The notes under the pieces were generated by a model. It saw nothing but the letters and a program-made list of their open reading frames with translations. It searched no databases and was not told the DNA's origin. Positions 385-5,622 of a stretch of DNA of 5,622 bases are shown in pieces; the first letter of the stretch is position 1, and every line of letters starts with the position of its first letter. The translations under genes were made by a program, and so were the position numbers. This DNA comes from Candidatus Hodarchaeota archaeon (GTDB lineage Archaea; Asgardarchaeota; Heimdallarchaeia; Hodarchaeales; YT1-039): assembly GCA_016840025.1 (NCBI GenBank), contig JAEOTF010000066.1, positions 1 to 5,622 on the forward strand, given 5' to 3'.

Positions 385-400
385 TGTAAAATTTACCTTT
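385..400 (+). repeat. Copy 1 of 16-bp TGTAAAWTTTACCTTT element
   Basis: TGTAAAATTTACCTTT matches the sequence at 555-570 at 15 of 16 positions, differing only in the central base. The core GTAAA-W-TTTAC is itself a dyad, so the two copies look like symmetric binding sites about 170 bp apart, in the same orientation as judged by the CCTTT tail. It overlaps the left arm of the inverted repeat at 390-432. Confidence 0.5.
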
Positions 401-1035: not shown

Positions 1036-2991
1036 ATGCATCTTCAACGATTCAAACTGAGAGTAATTAAGATAATCTCATTAGCATTAGCTATTTCTTG
1101 TACTATTTCGCTAGGCATTTCATTACCAATGATGGTTGAACCATACAATGACTACAGATATAGTAACATAACTATCTTGAATAATCCTTCTCTTCTCAAA
1201 GCGCTGAACGACACTCAAAATGAGGGAGTCCTTATGTGCATACATGGATGGAACCATGAAGATTTCACTTCAATCTCCCCTACTGAAGCAAAAGAAGCTG
1301 TAGAAAATAGTCTGTTCGTATTTAGTGAAGCTGGACTGGAACCTGCGGCTTTCATAGTACCATATGGTTCTTATAATCTGCTACTCCAATCTGTGAAATC
1401 GGCAATAGAAAGCACAGGAATCGCAGTTAACCTGCCTGTACAGCCCCAATCCAAATACAGCTACGGATGGGGCTGGCGGGATATGAAGAGCTTCGACGAC
1501 AACCGCTACGAGAATACACGATTAAGACTCATTAACGAGCAGCCAGATTACATAGTCCTGCACGTGCAAGATTGGAACATCTATCTGAAGAAATTGATTG
1601 AAGAGTATCTTCAGGAGACTCAGCATGCTAATGTCACAATCAGAGTTGACGATGTTGAGGTAAATACTCCAGCAGAGATCGTCTACGACATGACGAGCCT
1701 CTTGGAGCATCATTCGCTGGAGATTTTAGCTTTCGCTGTTGTCCCATCTGGGACATGGAGAGGAGGAGATCCGATGATATTCGGTATCAGTGTTGATGCA
1801 ATCCTTAGGCTCTATTGGTTATTCTTCCTTTTGACTATTTTTCTTCCCCTTTCTTATTTGTTAATTTGGAGATTGTTTTCTAGGCGCGCTGGAAATAATG
1901 AAAACGAGGAGAATACAAATTCTCGTGATTTTGAAAAGAAAAAAAAGAAGAATGTCTCTGTTATTGTCACGGCGTATAATGAAGAGGAAAATATTGAGAA
2001 GTGCATCGAGAGCATTCAAAATCAGGATTATGACGGCGATGTTGAAATTGTCATTGTGAATGATGGTTCGACTGATAAGACTGCAGACATTATTGCCAAT
2101 TATCCTGTGAAACTCATAAACCTTGAGAACAACCATGGTAAAGCCCAGGCACTAAATATGGGAGTCAATAATGCTAAGGGGGATATTCTAGTATTCTCGG
2201 ATTCGGATTCTCAAATGGCAAAAAACGCGATTCGTTTGTTGGTCGAGTATCTCGAAGAACACAAGGAAGTAGGCGCAGTAGCAGGAAACGTGTTCATCAA
2301 TGAAAAACACGCGAATTCTCTAGCATATTTTCAAATGATTGAATATCGCATTGAGCAAGAGATCAATAAACATCTTCAAAGTCAAAATGGAAACGTTTTG
2401 GTTTGTCCTGGTCCGTTGTTTGCGGTGCGGAGACACATCGCTGAAAAGACCATCTTTAGCGACGTGACCGTTGTAGAAGATGCGGATTTTACGATCACAG
2501 CCATTAGGAAACGTGACGCGAAAGTCAGTTGGGTACCAGAAGCAAAAGTCTACACGGAAGCACCGAAATCTATTCTATCTTGGCTTAATCAAAGGAAAAG
2601 ATGGTGGTACGGAAACCTTCAATTATGGAGGGCACACAACGGTTGGGCAATGACAAACCCTTGGATGCTAATGAACTACGTGAGCTTTATCACAAGCACT
2701 GTTTCTATCATATTATTGCTGTTGCTTCCAGTGTTATTTTCGACATATGATAATGCTTGGTTACTGTTACAGCGTGGAATGGTTTACACAATAGCTCCTA
2801 TAATATTGTTCTTTATTCTGTTGTCTCCACTGTTCATCAAACAGAAATCTGTTATGTTGTTATGGCTTCTACCTTACATATTGGTTTATTCTATAATGAA
2901 GTCTATTGTAGTTAGCTACATCTATCTATGCTACCTTTCTGGGAGAGGAGTCAAGATATTATTCGGTTCTCGAATCATAGAGGCTAAATGA
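1036..2991 (+). CDS. Deacetylase-like (DUF2334/NodB-type) domain fused to membrane GT2 polysaccharide synthase
   Basis: This 651-residue protein probably polymerises an activated sugar and exports or modifies the product at the membrane. A signal-anchor helix (about 11-32) leads to an extracytoplasmic domain (about 40-245) with polysaccharide-deacetylase signatures: HGWNH (70-74), VPYGSY (108-113), LHVQDW (175-180), RVDDV (203-207) and AVVP (234-237). The order is permuted relative to the family, where RxDDV and AVIP come first. The metal ligands D206, H70 and H74 appear intact. A helix (about 255-281) and a basic linker precede a complete GT2 domain: VNDGSTD (341-347), DSD (389-391), VED (480-482) and QRKRW (519-523). 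Three C-terminal helices follow (about 545-568, 581-601, 605-635). The arrangement resembles PgaC/hyaluronan-synthase-type processive enzymes, so a HexNAc-containing polymer is plausible but unproven. An in-frame TGA at 1027 makes the ATG at 1036 the only good start. It overlaps the next gene by 4 bases. Confidence 0.9.
   Translation: MHLQRFKLRVIKIISLALAISCTISLGISLPMMVEPYNDYRYSNITILNNPSLLKALNDTQNEGVLMCIHGWNHEDFTSISPTEAKEAVENSLFVFSEAGLEPAAFIVPYGSYNLLLQSVKSAIESTGIAVNLPVQPQSKYSYGWGWRDMKSFDDNRYENTRLRLINEQPDYIVLHVQDWNIYLKKLIEEYLQETQHANVTIRVDDVEVNTPAEIVYDMTSLLEHHSLEILAFAVVPSGTWRGGDPMIFGISVDAILRLYWLFFLLTIFLPLSYLLIWRLFSRRAGNNENEENTNSRDFEKKKKKNVSVIVTAYNEEENIEKCIESIQNQDYDGDVEIVIVNDGSTDKTADIIANYPVKLINLENNHGKAQALNMGVNNAKGDILVFSDSDSQMAKNAIRLLVEYLEEHKEVGAVAGNVFINEKHANSLAYFQMIEYRIEQEINKHLQSQNGNVLVCPGPLFAVRRHIAEKTIFSDVTVVEDADFTITAIRKRDAKVSWVPEAKVYTEAPKSILSWLNQRKRWWYGNLQLWRAHNGWAMTNPWMLMNYVSFITSTVSIILLLLLPVLFSTYDNAWLLLQRGMVYTIAPIILFFILLSPLFIKQKSVMLLWLLPYILVYSIMKSIVVSYIYLCYLSGRGVKILFGSRIIEAK
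2979..2983 (+). promoter_or_regulatory. Ribosome binding site AGAGG for the second operon gene
   Basis: AGAGG lies within the last codons of the synthase gene, 4 bases before the ATG at 2988 and 7 bases before a second in-frame ATG at 2991. The spacing favours initiation at 2991 (MKKIVRLG), which would place the stop and start as TGATG; the ATG at 2988 gives an ATGA overlap. Either way the two genes are translationally coupled. Confidence 0.45.
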
Positions 2992-4607
2992 TGAAAAAAA
3001 TTGTTAGATTGGGACTAGTTGTCAGTTTACTCTTAGTTTCTCTTTCACCTATTAGTGAAGGGGTTTCCGCTCAAGACGCTGTGGTTCAGGGAGTTTGGAA
3101 TAACTTCAGTTTTAGAAGACAAGCTGAAGATTGGTCATCTGCTGCAAAAAGATTTGGGGGCGAGAATGGATTGGTGGATCTGGTTGTTGCACAAGCAAAC
3201 AGTGAAGGATATGCTGCCCTACCATTCCCATTCGAAAGTGATGCCTATCTACGCAGTATAAGTGAGATCGATATGGTGGAGTCATACCTCACAAGATTCG
3301 ATTTGGAGGGGTTAAAGGTAATACTTTCAATCCAACCGTTAAAGGCTGATGTTTCACAGTTGATAAGCATAATACTTCAACGATATGGACATCACGACAG
3401 CATAATAGGTATTAATGTAGATTTGGAATGGAAAGAGAGCGGTATCATAAATCATGTAAGCAACAAAGAAAGAGATGAATGGCTCAGCAAAATAAAGAAT
3501 TATAAATCTAGTCTCAAATTATTTCTGACCTACTTCGGGGATTACAAAAATTTTCCAAATGATAGTACAGATCTAGTAATACTTTTCGATGCAGAAAATG
3601 ATACTCAAACCAATATCTTGGAAAGATATAGAAAACTTGCCGAACATTTTAGTACGGTGGGAATTTACACAGGTTATCAGTCAAGTGTTCCACCTACAGC
3701 ATCCTATAATAGAATTGTTTCTGCAGTCCCAAAAACAGAATACATAATCCAAGTAAGCGGCATATTCTCTGATAAGCCCGTACTGATATTCGAGTTAGAT
3801 AATATCCAAGCAGGTTGGTTGGAGTACACAACGAAAAAACTCATAGATCTGCATGTGCAAGAACGTGTGCCTTTGTTATGCGGTGTAATTCCCTACAATC
3901 TCGATAATCCAGACATGGGCACCGGAATACTTCTAAGACACCTTAACAACTTGGAAGAAAACTTCGACATTTTCGAAATAGGACAAGAAGGATACACCGA
4001 TGACGATTCGGGATTAATGAAGGGTAAGAGCTACGAAGAGCAAAAGGAAATCGTTGAAGAGGGATTTAGAGTTCTCACATCCGTCGGATTAAGGCCGGAC
4101 ACATTTGTTCCTCCACACGGATCAGCTGATGAAACCACAGTCAAAGTAGCGGAAGAAATAGGATTCAAAGGATTCGTGAATCTCTACGAGAATCTGAGAT
4201 CTGATACACTTCTAGTCATAGACTCTTGGGTTTCTTTGACGGATGTATTTGAGAACAATACAGTGATCAAAACATCAGACGAACTGATGAGCGAGATCGA
4301 CAGGACGAACGAGAAAGTAACAATTGTTCTGTACGAGATCAATGATTTTCAAACAAACTCCCAAAACAAGCTTGTTGAGTTCTCAAATACATTGAGAGCG
4401 CTAAAGAATAGTGGTAAGTATAGGTTTATGACTCTGACCGAGTATCGGGAAATTCTAGAAAACAACGCTGAACAGGAACATCCACAAACATTTATTCCTA
4501 TTCATTGGATCTCTGTCTCCATATGTATTTTGGCAATCTGCATTGTTATCTTAGTATACAGAACGAAGAAATCTAGTCAAACGAGCATGCGATTATCTGC
4601 GAGATAA
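2988..4607 (+). CDS. Secreted, membrane-anchored protein: glycosidase-like barrel plus degenerate polysaccharide deacetylase domain
   Basis: This 539-residue protein has a signal peptide (1-28, cleavage probably after VSA), a large extracytoplasmic part, one C-terminal helix (about 503-524) and a short basic tail. Residues 30-255 look like a TIM-barrel glycosidase-type domain; GINVDLEW (141-148) recalls the DxDxE strand of GH18-like enzymes with the first Asp replaced by Asn, and E147 is the candidate acid. Residues 262-485 match the DUF2334/deacetylase fold in normal order: FELDNIQ (268-274), GVIP (299-302), QEGYTDDD (333-340), FVPPHGS (373-379) and IVLYEINDF (446-454). The expected DD is DN, HGxxH is EGxxD, and the late LH is LY, so catalysis is doubtful. 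Coupled translation with the upstream synthase suggests a partner role, such as binding, guiding or trimming the polymer. The layout resembles PgaB with its two domains swapped. Start at 2988 or 2991. Confidence 0.85.
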   Translation: MMKKIVRLGLVVSLLLVSLSPISEGVSAQDAVVQGVWNNFSFRRQAEDWSSAAKRFGGENGLVDLVVAQANSEGYAALPFPFESDAYLRSISEIDMVESYLTRFDLEGLKVILSIQPLKADVSQLISIILQRYGHHDSIIGINVDLEWKESGIINHVSNKERDEWLSKIKNYKSSLKLFLTYFGDYKNFPNDSTDLVILFDAENDTQTNILERYRKLAEHFSTVGIYTGYQSSVPPTASYNRIVSAVPKTEYIIQVSGIFSDKPVLIFELDNIQAGWLEYTTKKLIDLHVQERVPLLCGVIPYNLDNPDMGTGILLRHLNNLEENFDIFEIGQEGYTDDDSGLMKGKSYEEQKEIVEEGFRVLTSVGLRPDTFVPPHGSADETTVKVAEEIGFKGFVNLYENLRSDTLLVIDSWVSLTDVFENNTVIKTSDELMSEIDRTNEKVTIVLYEINDFQTNSQNKLVEFSNTLRALKNSGKYRFMTLTEYREILENNAEQEHPQTFIPIHWISVSICILAICIVILVYRTKKSSQTSMRLSAR

Positions 4608-5054: not shown

Positions 5055-5622
5055 TTATTCCCAGTTTCTTTCCCTCTTTAGCGATCTTAATTGACCAATG
5101 ATACTGGCGTATGCTAATATGGTATTCTGGTATAGAACATACAAAGGTGCGATGATAATTGATTCTAAACTACGAGTTCGAAGAAAAGTTAAAAAGCCAA
5201 TATAAGCCCAAAAAAAAACAGAGTAGATGAAGTAGTAAGGCAGAATTGCCGTGGACTTGTAAAAAAATAGAGGTAGAAAAACCAGTGCTATCAATCTACT
5301 ATATCCTCCAACAAACCCATAGAAGAAAGTAAAAAACCATTCAATTCCCTTGAATATCCCGGAGGAGAAGAGATTCCTTTTAGAAAAAACCTCAAAACCA
5401 CCTTGTTGCCATCTTGCTCTTTGTTTGATTAAGTTTGAGATGGTGTTGGGAACTTGAGTATAGGCTACTGCTTCTACCACCAATCTGACTTCATGTCCGA
5501 GTTTAAGTATCTTGGAAGATGTATCAAAATCTTCCGTCATTGTTCCCACTTCAAATTTGGATAAGATACTTTTCCTGTATGCAGAGAAAGCCCCTGGTGT
5601 AACAAGGGCGACACCTAATTTC
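5055..5622 (-). CDS. GT2 membrane glycosyltransferase, C-terminal part (5' end outside window)
   Basis: The frame is open from the window's right edge to TAA at 5055-5057, giving 188 residues of the C-terminal portion of a GT2 enzyme. Visible landmarks are VTPGAFSAYRK (7-17, the usual PGAFxAxR acceptor-loop region), TEDFD (29-33, the catalytic ED) and QRARW (67-71, the QxxRW motif of processive GT2 enzymes). At least three hydrophobic segments then run from about residue 90 to 180, and the protein ends in a charged tail (RSLKRERNWE). The catalytic N-terminal half with the DxD motif lies outside the window. The GTG at 5547-5549 is an internal codon, not a start, because conserved GT2 sequence continues upstream. 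The protein is related in plan to the synthase at 1036-2991 but lacks close sequence identity. It is convergent with that operon and followed by a small membrane protein, suggesting a second surface-glycan module. Confidence 0.88.
   Translation of the reverse strand, partial: KLGVALVTPGAFSAYRKSILSKFEVGTMTEDFDTSSKILKLGHEVRLVVEAVAYTQVPNTISNLIKQRARWQQGGFEVFSKRNLFSSGIFKGIEWFFTFFYGFVGGYSRLIALVFLPLFFYKSTAILPYYFIYSVFFWAYIGFLTFLRTRSLESIIIAPLYVLYQNTILAYASIIGQLRSLKRERNWE

What the first reader, a model, noticed from the sequence alone, without database searches (positions are those of the whole stretch)
1036..1800. Circularly permuted deacetylase domain fused to a GT2 synthase
In NodB/DUF2334-type deacetylases the order is DD motif, AVIP, HGxxH, PPxG, LH. 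Here the order is HGWNH (70-74), VPYG (108-111), LHVQD (175-179), then RVDDV (203-207) and AVVP (234-237), directly before the helix leading into GT2. The pieces are complementary: the segment before HGWNH (NNPSLLKALNDTQNEG) is what normally follows AVIP. The metal ligands D206, H70 and H74 are all present, so the permuted domain could be active, with both ends tethered to the membrane. The alternative is two tandem domains, each half deleted.
Basis: partly seen in the sequence, partly recalled or inferred. Interest (0 to 1): 0.72.

Follow-up and report, generated by a model that had tools for sequence, protein, structure and literature searches.

The report
Rewired deacetylase built into sugar-polymer synthase
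In a group of uncultured archaea, a membrane enzyme that appears to build a sugar polymer carries a deacetylase-like domain whose pieces are in a rotated order, an arrangement that differs from the two layouts described for this fold and may place the active site where the new polymer leaves the membrane.

Summary
ORF 1036-2991 (651 aa) reads TM1 - [HGWNH70-74, VPYG108-111, LHVQD175-179, RVDD203-206, AVVP234-237] - TM2 - PgaC-like GT2 - TMs. It is not an artefact: 19 proteins (this one included), in two distant clades, share the order, with H70, H74, P109, H176, R203, D205 and D206 invariant. Rotating the module back turns a partial match to archaeal DUF2334 into a nearly full one (hhalign 89.5 to 119.0; best of 200 column shuffles 102.4). 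The AF2 model matches CE4 enzymes except for their first 36-40 residues, which the canonical neighbour protein does match; only five strands form in it. A circular permutation is known in IcaB/PgaB (MT5-1-2-3), but here the cut lies between MT1 and MT2. Inferred, not shown: the domain is active, and both membrane tethers leave from the catalytic face, next to the polymer exit. The D206-H70/H74 distance could not be measured (no coordinates). A coupled gene with a canonical-order DUF2334 domain follows; its own metal site is lost here.

The parts
1036..2991 (+). ORF, 651 aa: membrane GT2 synthase with N-terminal permuted deacetylase-like module
1051..1134 (+). TM1 (about residues 6-33), predicted N-terminus inside
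   Evidence: hydropathy peak 6-24 and charge +1 before / -2 after; helix 2-37 in AF2 model
1171..1776 (+). permuted NodB/DUF2334 module core (residues 46-247), predicted extracytoplasmic
1171..1623 (+). first part of module (46-196) = canonical helix after AVIP through MT2, MT3, MT5
   Evidence: hhalign to canonical positions 42-192
1243..1257 (+). MT2 HGWNH; H70, H74 predicted metal ligands
   Evidence: H70, G71, H74 invariant
1357..1368 (+). MT3-like VPYG (P109 invariant)
1474..1479 (+). W147-R148, invariant pair; candidate for the late base-positioning Arg
   Evidence: invariant; role inferred
1558..1572 (+). MT5 LHVQD; H176 predicted catalytic acid
   Evidence: H176 invariant; role inferred
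1624..1776 (+). second part of module (197-247) = canonical N-terminus (MT1 strand, helix, AVIP strand, GGDP loop)
   Evidence: on its own aligns to canonical positions 4-40
1642..1653 (+). MT1 RVDD; R203, D205 (base), D206 (metal)
   Evidence: R203, D205, D206 invariant; roles inferred
1735..1746 (+). AVVP strand end (V235 invariant; nearly invariant)
1792..1878 (+). TM2 (about residues 253-281) leading into the predicted cytosolic GT2
   Evidence: helices 253-268 and 270-284; hydropathy peak 248-266
1951..2613 (+). GT2 domain with DSD (389), EDADFT (481), QRKRW (519)
   Evidence: Pfam PF00535/PF13641; NCBIfam; motifs; HAS/BcsA matches
2680..2913 (+). three C-terminal TM segments
2988..4607 (+). 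partner gene, 539 aa, start overlapping the end of the first gene by 4 nt: N-terminal helix/signal, beta-alpha domain that looks like a TIM barrel by its element order (33-255), canonical-order DUF2334 (262-496), C-terminal TM helix
   Evidence: same arrangement in L001

Best explanation
The protein is a processive membrane glycan synthase (PgaC/NodC/hyaluronan-synthase-like GT2) with a circularly permuted NodB/DUF2334 de-N-acetylase (or de-O-acetylase) held outside the membrane between TM1 and TM2. The barrel's chain ends were moved from the canonical MT5|MT1 gap to the loop after the second strand (AVIP), so the motif order is MT2-MT3-MT5-MT1 while the cyclic order and the metal site (D206, H70, H74; base D205; acid H176) are kept. 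Because the new ends leave the barrel at the C-terminal ends of its strands, both short tethers (about 10-17 residues) come from the catalytic face. This should turn the active site towards the membrane, where the polymer leaves the GT2 channel, so that acetyl groups are removed as the chain emerges. Shown: order, conservation, homology to DUF2334, partial barrel in the model, grouping of the permuted modules. Inferred: a complete barrel, metal binding, activity, facing, substrate.
Confidence: 0.66

Rival explanations
1. The module is permuted and folds as a NodB-like barrel but is a non-catalytic chain-binding or structural domain of the synthase; deacetylation is done by the partner protein or not at all.
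For: CE4 pseudoenzymes exist (7bkf and 6hm9 are named so among the structural matches). The MT3 Arg and MT4 Asp are not in their usual places. In L001 the partner has an intact HGYAH/LDD site.
Against: All five ligand and catalytic positions (H70, H74, H176, D205, D206) are invariant in 19 proteins of two distant clades. In 6 of 7 pairs, this window included, it is the partner that has lost its H..H (5 of the 7 pairs are inferred from equal contig lengths).
Confidence: 0.2
2. Two half-domains: the N-terminal and C-terminal parts are remnants of two tandem DUF2334 domains that do not form one site in one chain, but complete each other between two chains (domain-swapped dimer) or with the partner protein.
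For: Tandem DUF2334 pairs, each copy covering the profile, exist in the 4 proteins checked, which were picked because one search showed two matches in one frame (L102-L105). The two ends carry similar short stretches (GGDPxI and LDxPxLL; reading) and the rotated join has a surplus of about 9 residues, as duplication and trimming would leave. The model forms only five strands.
Against: AF2 packs both parts of one chain with high confidence (17 of 19 blocks of 51-240 at 88 or more), though AF2 on one chain does not exclude a swap. None of the 18 other proteins keeps two copies.
Confidence: 0.1
3. Sequencing, assembly or frameshift artefact that swapped two gene pieces.
For: The window is a short contig of unnamed source; P0001 has a different start.
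Against: 18 other proteins on contigs of other lengths, including a named Bathyarchaeota MAG (L001) and a 450,968-base contig (L006/P0013), have the same order.
Confidence: 0.01

Closest known systems
IcaB/PgaB PNAG deacetylases (NodB2 topology)
   Same: Circularly permuted CE4/NodB domain; MT3 without its first Pro and base-positioning Arg from elsewhere (PMC10967932 passages); partner of a PgaC/IcaA GT2 synthase (recalled)
   Different: Cut lies in loop 5, so MT5 comes first, before MT1-MT3 (PMC5855634 and PMC10967932 passages; PMC7229062 legend). Here the cut is between MT1 and MT2. PgaB/IcaB are separate proteins, not built into the synthase (recalled)
Canonical DUF2334 (PF10096) / NodB1 CE4 enzymes
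   Same: R-x-DD, AVIP, HG(W/Y)xHE, PPY, (L/V)H motifs; homologous by profile alignment
   Different: Motif order MT1 to MT5; those read here are separate proteins, e.g. L009 and L033
PgaC/IcaA, NodC, hyaluronan synthase, BcsA
   Same: GT2 with DxD, ED and QxxRW motifs and C-terminal TMs; best NCBIfam model is PgaC_IcaA
   Different: 135 of the 422 bits needed; carries an extracytoplasmic deacetylase-like module between its first two TMs
PgaB and PelA, hydrolase plus deacetylase proteins (compare with the partner gene)
   Same: A hydrolase domain and a CE domain in one protein of a GT2-based polysaccharide system (PMC12022489 passages)
   Different: In the partner gene the other domain is N-terminal and only TIM-barrel-like by element order, the CE domain is DUF2334 in canonical order, and its metal site is lost in the window copy

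Membership tests
Pfam DUF2334 (PF10096) | profile score over the gathering threshold | tested here: met
   30.3 bits vs 26, natural order; 40.8 bits after rotation
CE4/NodB superfamily | MT1 Asp-Asp and MT2 H-x3-H metal ligands | tested here: met
   D205, D206, H70, H74 invariant
CE4/NodB superfamily | deformed (beta/alpha)7-8 barrel | tested here: inconclusive
CE4/NodB superfamily | MT3 RxPY and MT4 D/W motifs | tested here: inconclusive
   PY without R in clade 1, FPG in clade 2; invariant W147-R148 may replace the Arg; no MT4 Asp identified
CE4/NodB superfamily | metal-dependent deacetylation | not testable with these tools
   needs biochemistry
CE4/NodB superfamily | D206 and H70/H74 on one metal site in space | tested here: inconclusive
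   strand order consistent; no coordinates to measure
NodB1 topology | motif order MT1-2-3-4-5 | tested here: not met
   order MT2-3-5-1 in 19 proteins
NodB2 topology (PNAG deacetylases) | MT5 first, then MT1-MT3 | tested here: not met
   MT2 first, MT1 last
PgaC_IcaA (TIGR03937) | equivalog cut-off 422.3 bits | tested here: not met
   135.3 bits
processive membrane GT2 | DxD, ED, QxxRW motifs plus TM segments | tested here: met
   DSD389, EDADFT481, QRKRW519, three C-terminal TMs; HAS/BcsA matches

The most novel reading that the evidence does not exclude
This is a third natural topology of the NodB fold, selected so that both chain ends sit on the catalytic face. The deacetylase is thereby clamped active-site-down over the exit of its own synthase and deacetylates the nascent chain in cis, a one-protein synthase-deacetylase of archaea that relieved the partner's DUF2334 domain of its catalytic role.
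Probability: 0.38. Interest if true: 0.72.

Novelty: new variant of a known kind. Interest (0 to 1): 0.6.

Why it matters
[quoted passage not shown] A further natural permutation, conserved across two distant clades, would show that the barrel was reopened at another loop, and a reason can be tested: fusing the domain to a synthase with its active site towards the membrane. It also offers a single-chain model for coupling polymer synthesis and deacetylation in archaea, where, on my general knowledge, such machinery is poorly known.

Tried and rejected
Artefact or frameshift: rejected by 18 further proteins with the same order. A hidden second MT1 near the N-terminus ('ND' at 38-39): nearly invariant in clade 1, absent in clade 2, so not a ligand. 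A second HGxxH after AVVP: none in the sequence. A frame upstream of 1036 with the missing half: no ORF of 60 aa or more lies between 292 and 1036. No Rfam match in the window.

Wider spread: with A3, 34 of 256 class genomes matched, but only G001 and G129 over most of the module; with A5, 8 of 398 phylum genomes matched and only G001 in full. Of the 9 other places I read 6 (L070-L074, L078): canonical order, no GT2 in the frames seen. L075-L077 were not read. Six stand-alone proteins (L010, L011, L013, L024, L056, L058) have no DD-like motif before MT2 that could serve as MT1 and an invariant GDID near the C-terminus, see Noticed in passing. Profile tests did not settle it: local rotation 227.8 to 227.6, global 216.8 to 222.7 against shuffles of mean 218.0, maximum 231.4, and the C-terminal piece alone reached 13.3, a score that 16 of 200 shuffles also reach. 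L022 and L034 gave a wrong frame, and L048 and L060 showed no DD-like motif by that search; these four are unresolved.

The partner gene is not universal: at full length it was found only in G001 among 256 class genomes, and it is not next to L006. PgaB/IcaB chains are absent from the rows shown; that is no evidence against them. The control rotation scored 40.4 because it too restores the AVIP-to-helix junction, and in the scan other cuts that restore it score 101-109; the true negatives are the column shuffles. The fold of the partner's N-terminal domain was not identified: barely tested it. The association between pairing and a decayed partner site (intact H..H in 1 of 7 pairs vs 48 of 71 others, Fisher p 0.009) rests on equal contig lengths for 5 of the 7 pairs (5 of the 11 other clade-1 hits had such a match), is not corrected for kinship, and the context of the 71 is unknown. 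P0020 (the window's own copy) was dropped before that count and P0097-P0106 (partial hits) were not included.

Full report
What is there. The window holds a non-coding stretch before 1036, then two genes on the + strand whose reading frames overlap by four bases: ORF 1036-2991 (651 aa) and ORF 2988-4607 (539 aa). Pfam finds in the first a GT2 domain (PF00535, 131 bits, residues 308-471) and, before it, DUF2334 (30.3 bits, cut-off 26) over residues 36-109 only.

Is it more than chance or damage? A protein search with residues 1-260 returned 12 proteins, one of them the window's own. All 11 others, 44-54% identical in that region, have the same order, and across the alignment H70, G71, H74, P109, Y110, H176, W180, N181, R203, D205, D206 and E208-T211 are invariant. 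A close relative lies in a named Bathyarchaeota MAG (L001). A profile search of the 256 held genomes of that class matched 34, but only two over most of the module (G001, which is L001's genome, and G129). The second, L006, is a distant relative (20% identical over the module). Searching with it gave 7 proteins of a second clade, one of them L006's own, all with the order HGYxH, FPG, a strand ending in H, IR(C/L)DD, AVIP before TM2 and GT2. The alignment (8 rows of clade 2, L006 and P0013 being the same protein, and 4 of clade 1) keeps H, G, H, P, W-R, H, R, D, D invariant. So 19 proteins, the window's included, carry it.

Is it a rotated canonical domain? Two tests. First, Pfam scoring of 4 modules (of 5 prepared) in natural and rotated form: DUF2334 bits rise from 31.4 to 40.8, 42.2 to 50.5, 39.2 to 48.8 and 60.9 to 72.1, and the match then starts at profile position 2-3 instead of about 50; the other deacetylase profile, PF01522, hardly changes. 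A control cut elsewhere scored 40.4, because it also restores the AVIP-to-helix junction, so it is not a negative control. Second, an 11-row alignment of both clades was compared by hhalign with a profile of 10 canonical-order archaeal DUF2334 domains: natural order 89.5 (template 42-192), rotated 119.0 (template 5-192), with R-DD, AVIP, HGW.HED, P.Y and the H.Q(D/E) of MT5 in register and a surplus of about 9 residues at the join. Placing 200 column-shuffled versions of the moved part in front gave mean 90.7, sd 1.9, maximum 102.4; none reached 119. In a scan of cut points the scores are highest at columns 168-186 (true cut 182); other cuts that restore the junction reach 101-109. The cut thus lies in the loop after the AVIP strand. 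The C-terminal GGDPxI and the N-terminal LDxPxLL both resemble the single canonical stretch GxDxxLV there (reading), which with the 9-residue surplus is what trimming of a tandem duplicate would leave. Tandem DUF2334 pairs, each copy covering the whole profile, were confirmed in the 4 proteins picked for it (L102-L105); I saw no GT2 in them.

Grouping. In a tree of 34 domains the 11 rotated modules lie on one side of a branch with support 100/99, and so do the 10 partner-gene domains (100/98) (rooted at the midpoint for drawing only). The sampling is small.

How it probably works. Hydropathy and charge, weakly in the window and more clearly in L006, place the N-terminus and the GT2 inside and residues 34-252 outside. 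The GT2 has DSD, EDADFT and QRKRW. Its best NCBIfam model is PgaC_IcaA at 135 bits, far below the 422 cut-off, and hyaluronan and cellulose synthases match across part of the membrane region. I infer a processive synthase extruding an N-acetylated (or O-acetylated) chain. In a beta/alpha barrel a cut after a strand leaves both ends at the catalytic face; with tethers of about 10-17 residues this would hold the active site towards the membrane, over the chain exit (inference from topology). The invariant W147-R148 may supply the base-positioning Arg that in IcaB, PgaB and Agd3 also comes from outside MT3 (PMC7229062 passages; PMC10967932 passages).

The partner gene. ORF 2988-4607 is predicted as an N-terminal helix, a beta-alpha domain (33-255; invariant D145, E147, W148, K149 in 37 rows) that looks like a TIM barrel by element order only, canonical DUF2334 (262-496) and a C-terminal helix of TM length. 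L001 has the same two genes with the same 4-base overlap. In the window copy the ligands are lost (LDN, EGYTD); in L001 they are intact (LDD, HGYAH). Among 7 pairs (window and L001 from DNA; 5 inferred from equal contig lengths) 1 keeps H..H, against 48 of 71 other homologues. This suggests, without proof, that the synthase-borne domain took over the chemistry.

A possible parallel. Re-reading the other deacetylase loci of the class, six stand-alone proteins of about 280-310 aa have MT2, MT3 and an LHPIR MT5, no DD-like motif in the usual MT1 place before MT2, and an invariant GDID 10-11 residues from the C-terminus. Canonical relatives there have SFDYD- or VDVD-type MT1 at the start. This looks like another protein with MT1 moved behind MT5, with a cut inside the first helix, but the profile tests do not exceed shuffles, so it is a lead only. 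If true, permutation between MT1 and MT2 happened more than once in this class.

Compared with what is known. E. coli PgaB was described as a circularly permuted CE4 member (title of Nishiyama 2013 seen in reference lists; paper not read). A review states that the shuffling point of PNAG deacetylases is inside loop 5 (PMC5855634 passages), and the Agd3 paper's legend says that MT5 is N-terminal to MT1-4 in IcaB and PgaB (PMC7229062). An earlier paper says that circular permutations of the CE4 motifs have been reported in multiple members, without giving the orders in the passage I saw (PMC4817252). A 2024 survey concludes that the NodB domain takes one of two topologies, NodB1 or NodB2 (PMC10967932 passages). 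The order found here, MT2-MT3-MT5-MT1, fits neither. I found no report of it in the searches, which cover an open-licence library only, with capped lists. It is therefore, as far as I can see, a new variant of a known kind.

Noticed in passing
L010, L011 (296-1222), L013 (1246-2142), L024, L056, L058: Six stand-alone deacetylase-like proteins of the same class (PF01522 50-59 bits in the two scanned) with no MT1-like DD in the usual place before MT2 and an invariant GDID close to the C-terminus: perhaps another permutation with MT1 last. Profile rotation tests were no better than shuffles.
   Followed up: partly
window 2988-4607: Partner protein: its DUF2334 metal site is degraded here (LDN, EGYTD) but intact in L001 (LDD, HGYAH); among pairs 6 of 7 are degraded against 23 of 71 others.
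   Followed up: partly
window 390-398, 424-432, 457-465, 560-568: Four copies of AGGTAAAWT on both strands in the non-coding stretch; expected 0.16, none of 200 shuffles had four. Could be a regulator-binding repeat; the pattern was chosen after seeing repeats.
   Followed up: partly
window 5055-5621 (-): C-terminal part of a second GT2, on the opposite strand, also nearest PgaC_IcaA among NCBIfam models (43.9 bits); cut by the window end.
   Followed up: no
L102-L105: Archaeal proteins of about 900 aa with two tandem DUF2334 domains, each covering the profile.
   Followed up: partly
L065:652-2610 (-): Bathyarchaeal 652-aa protein with a group 1 glycosyltransferase followed by a polysaccharide deacetylase domain (PF13692 115 bits, PF01522 63.7 bits): a different fusion of the two activities.
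   Followed up: partly
clade 2 (L006, P0013-P0019): A Cys-containing insertion follows HGYxH (xCPxxGSxxYEL in most); some members have two or three Cys there, and several have a longer N-terminal extension before TM1.
   Followed up: no
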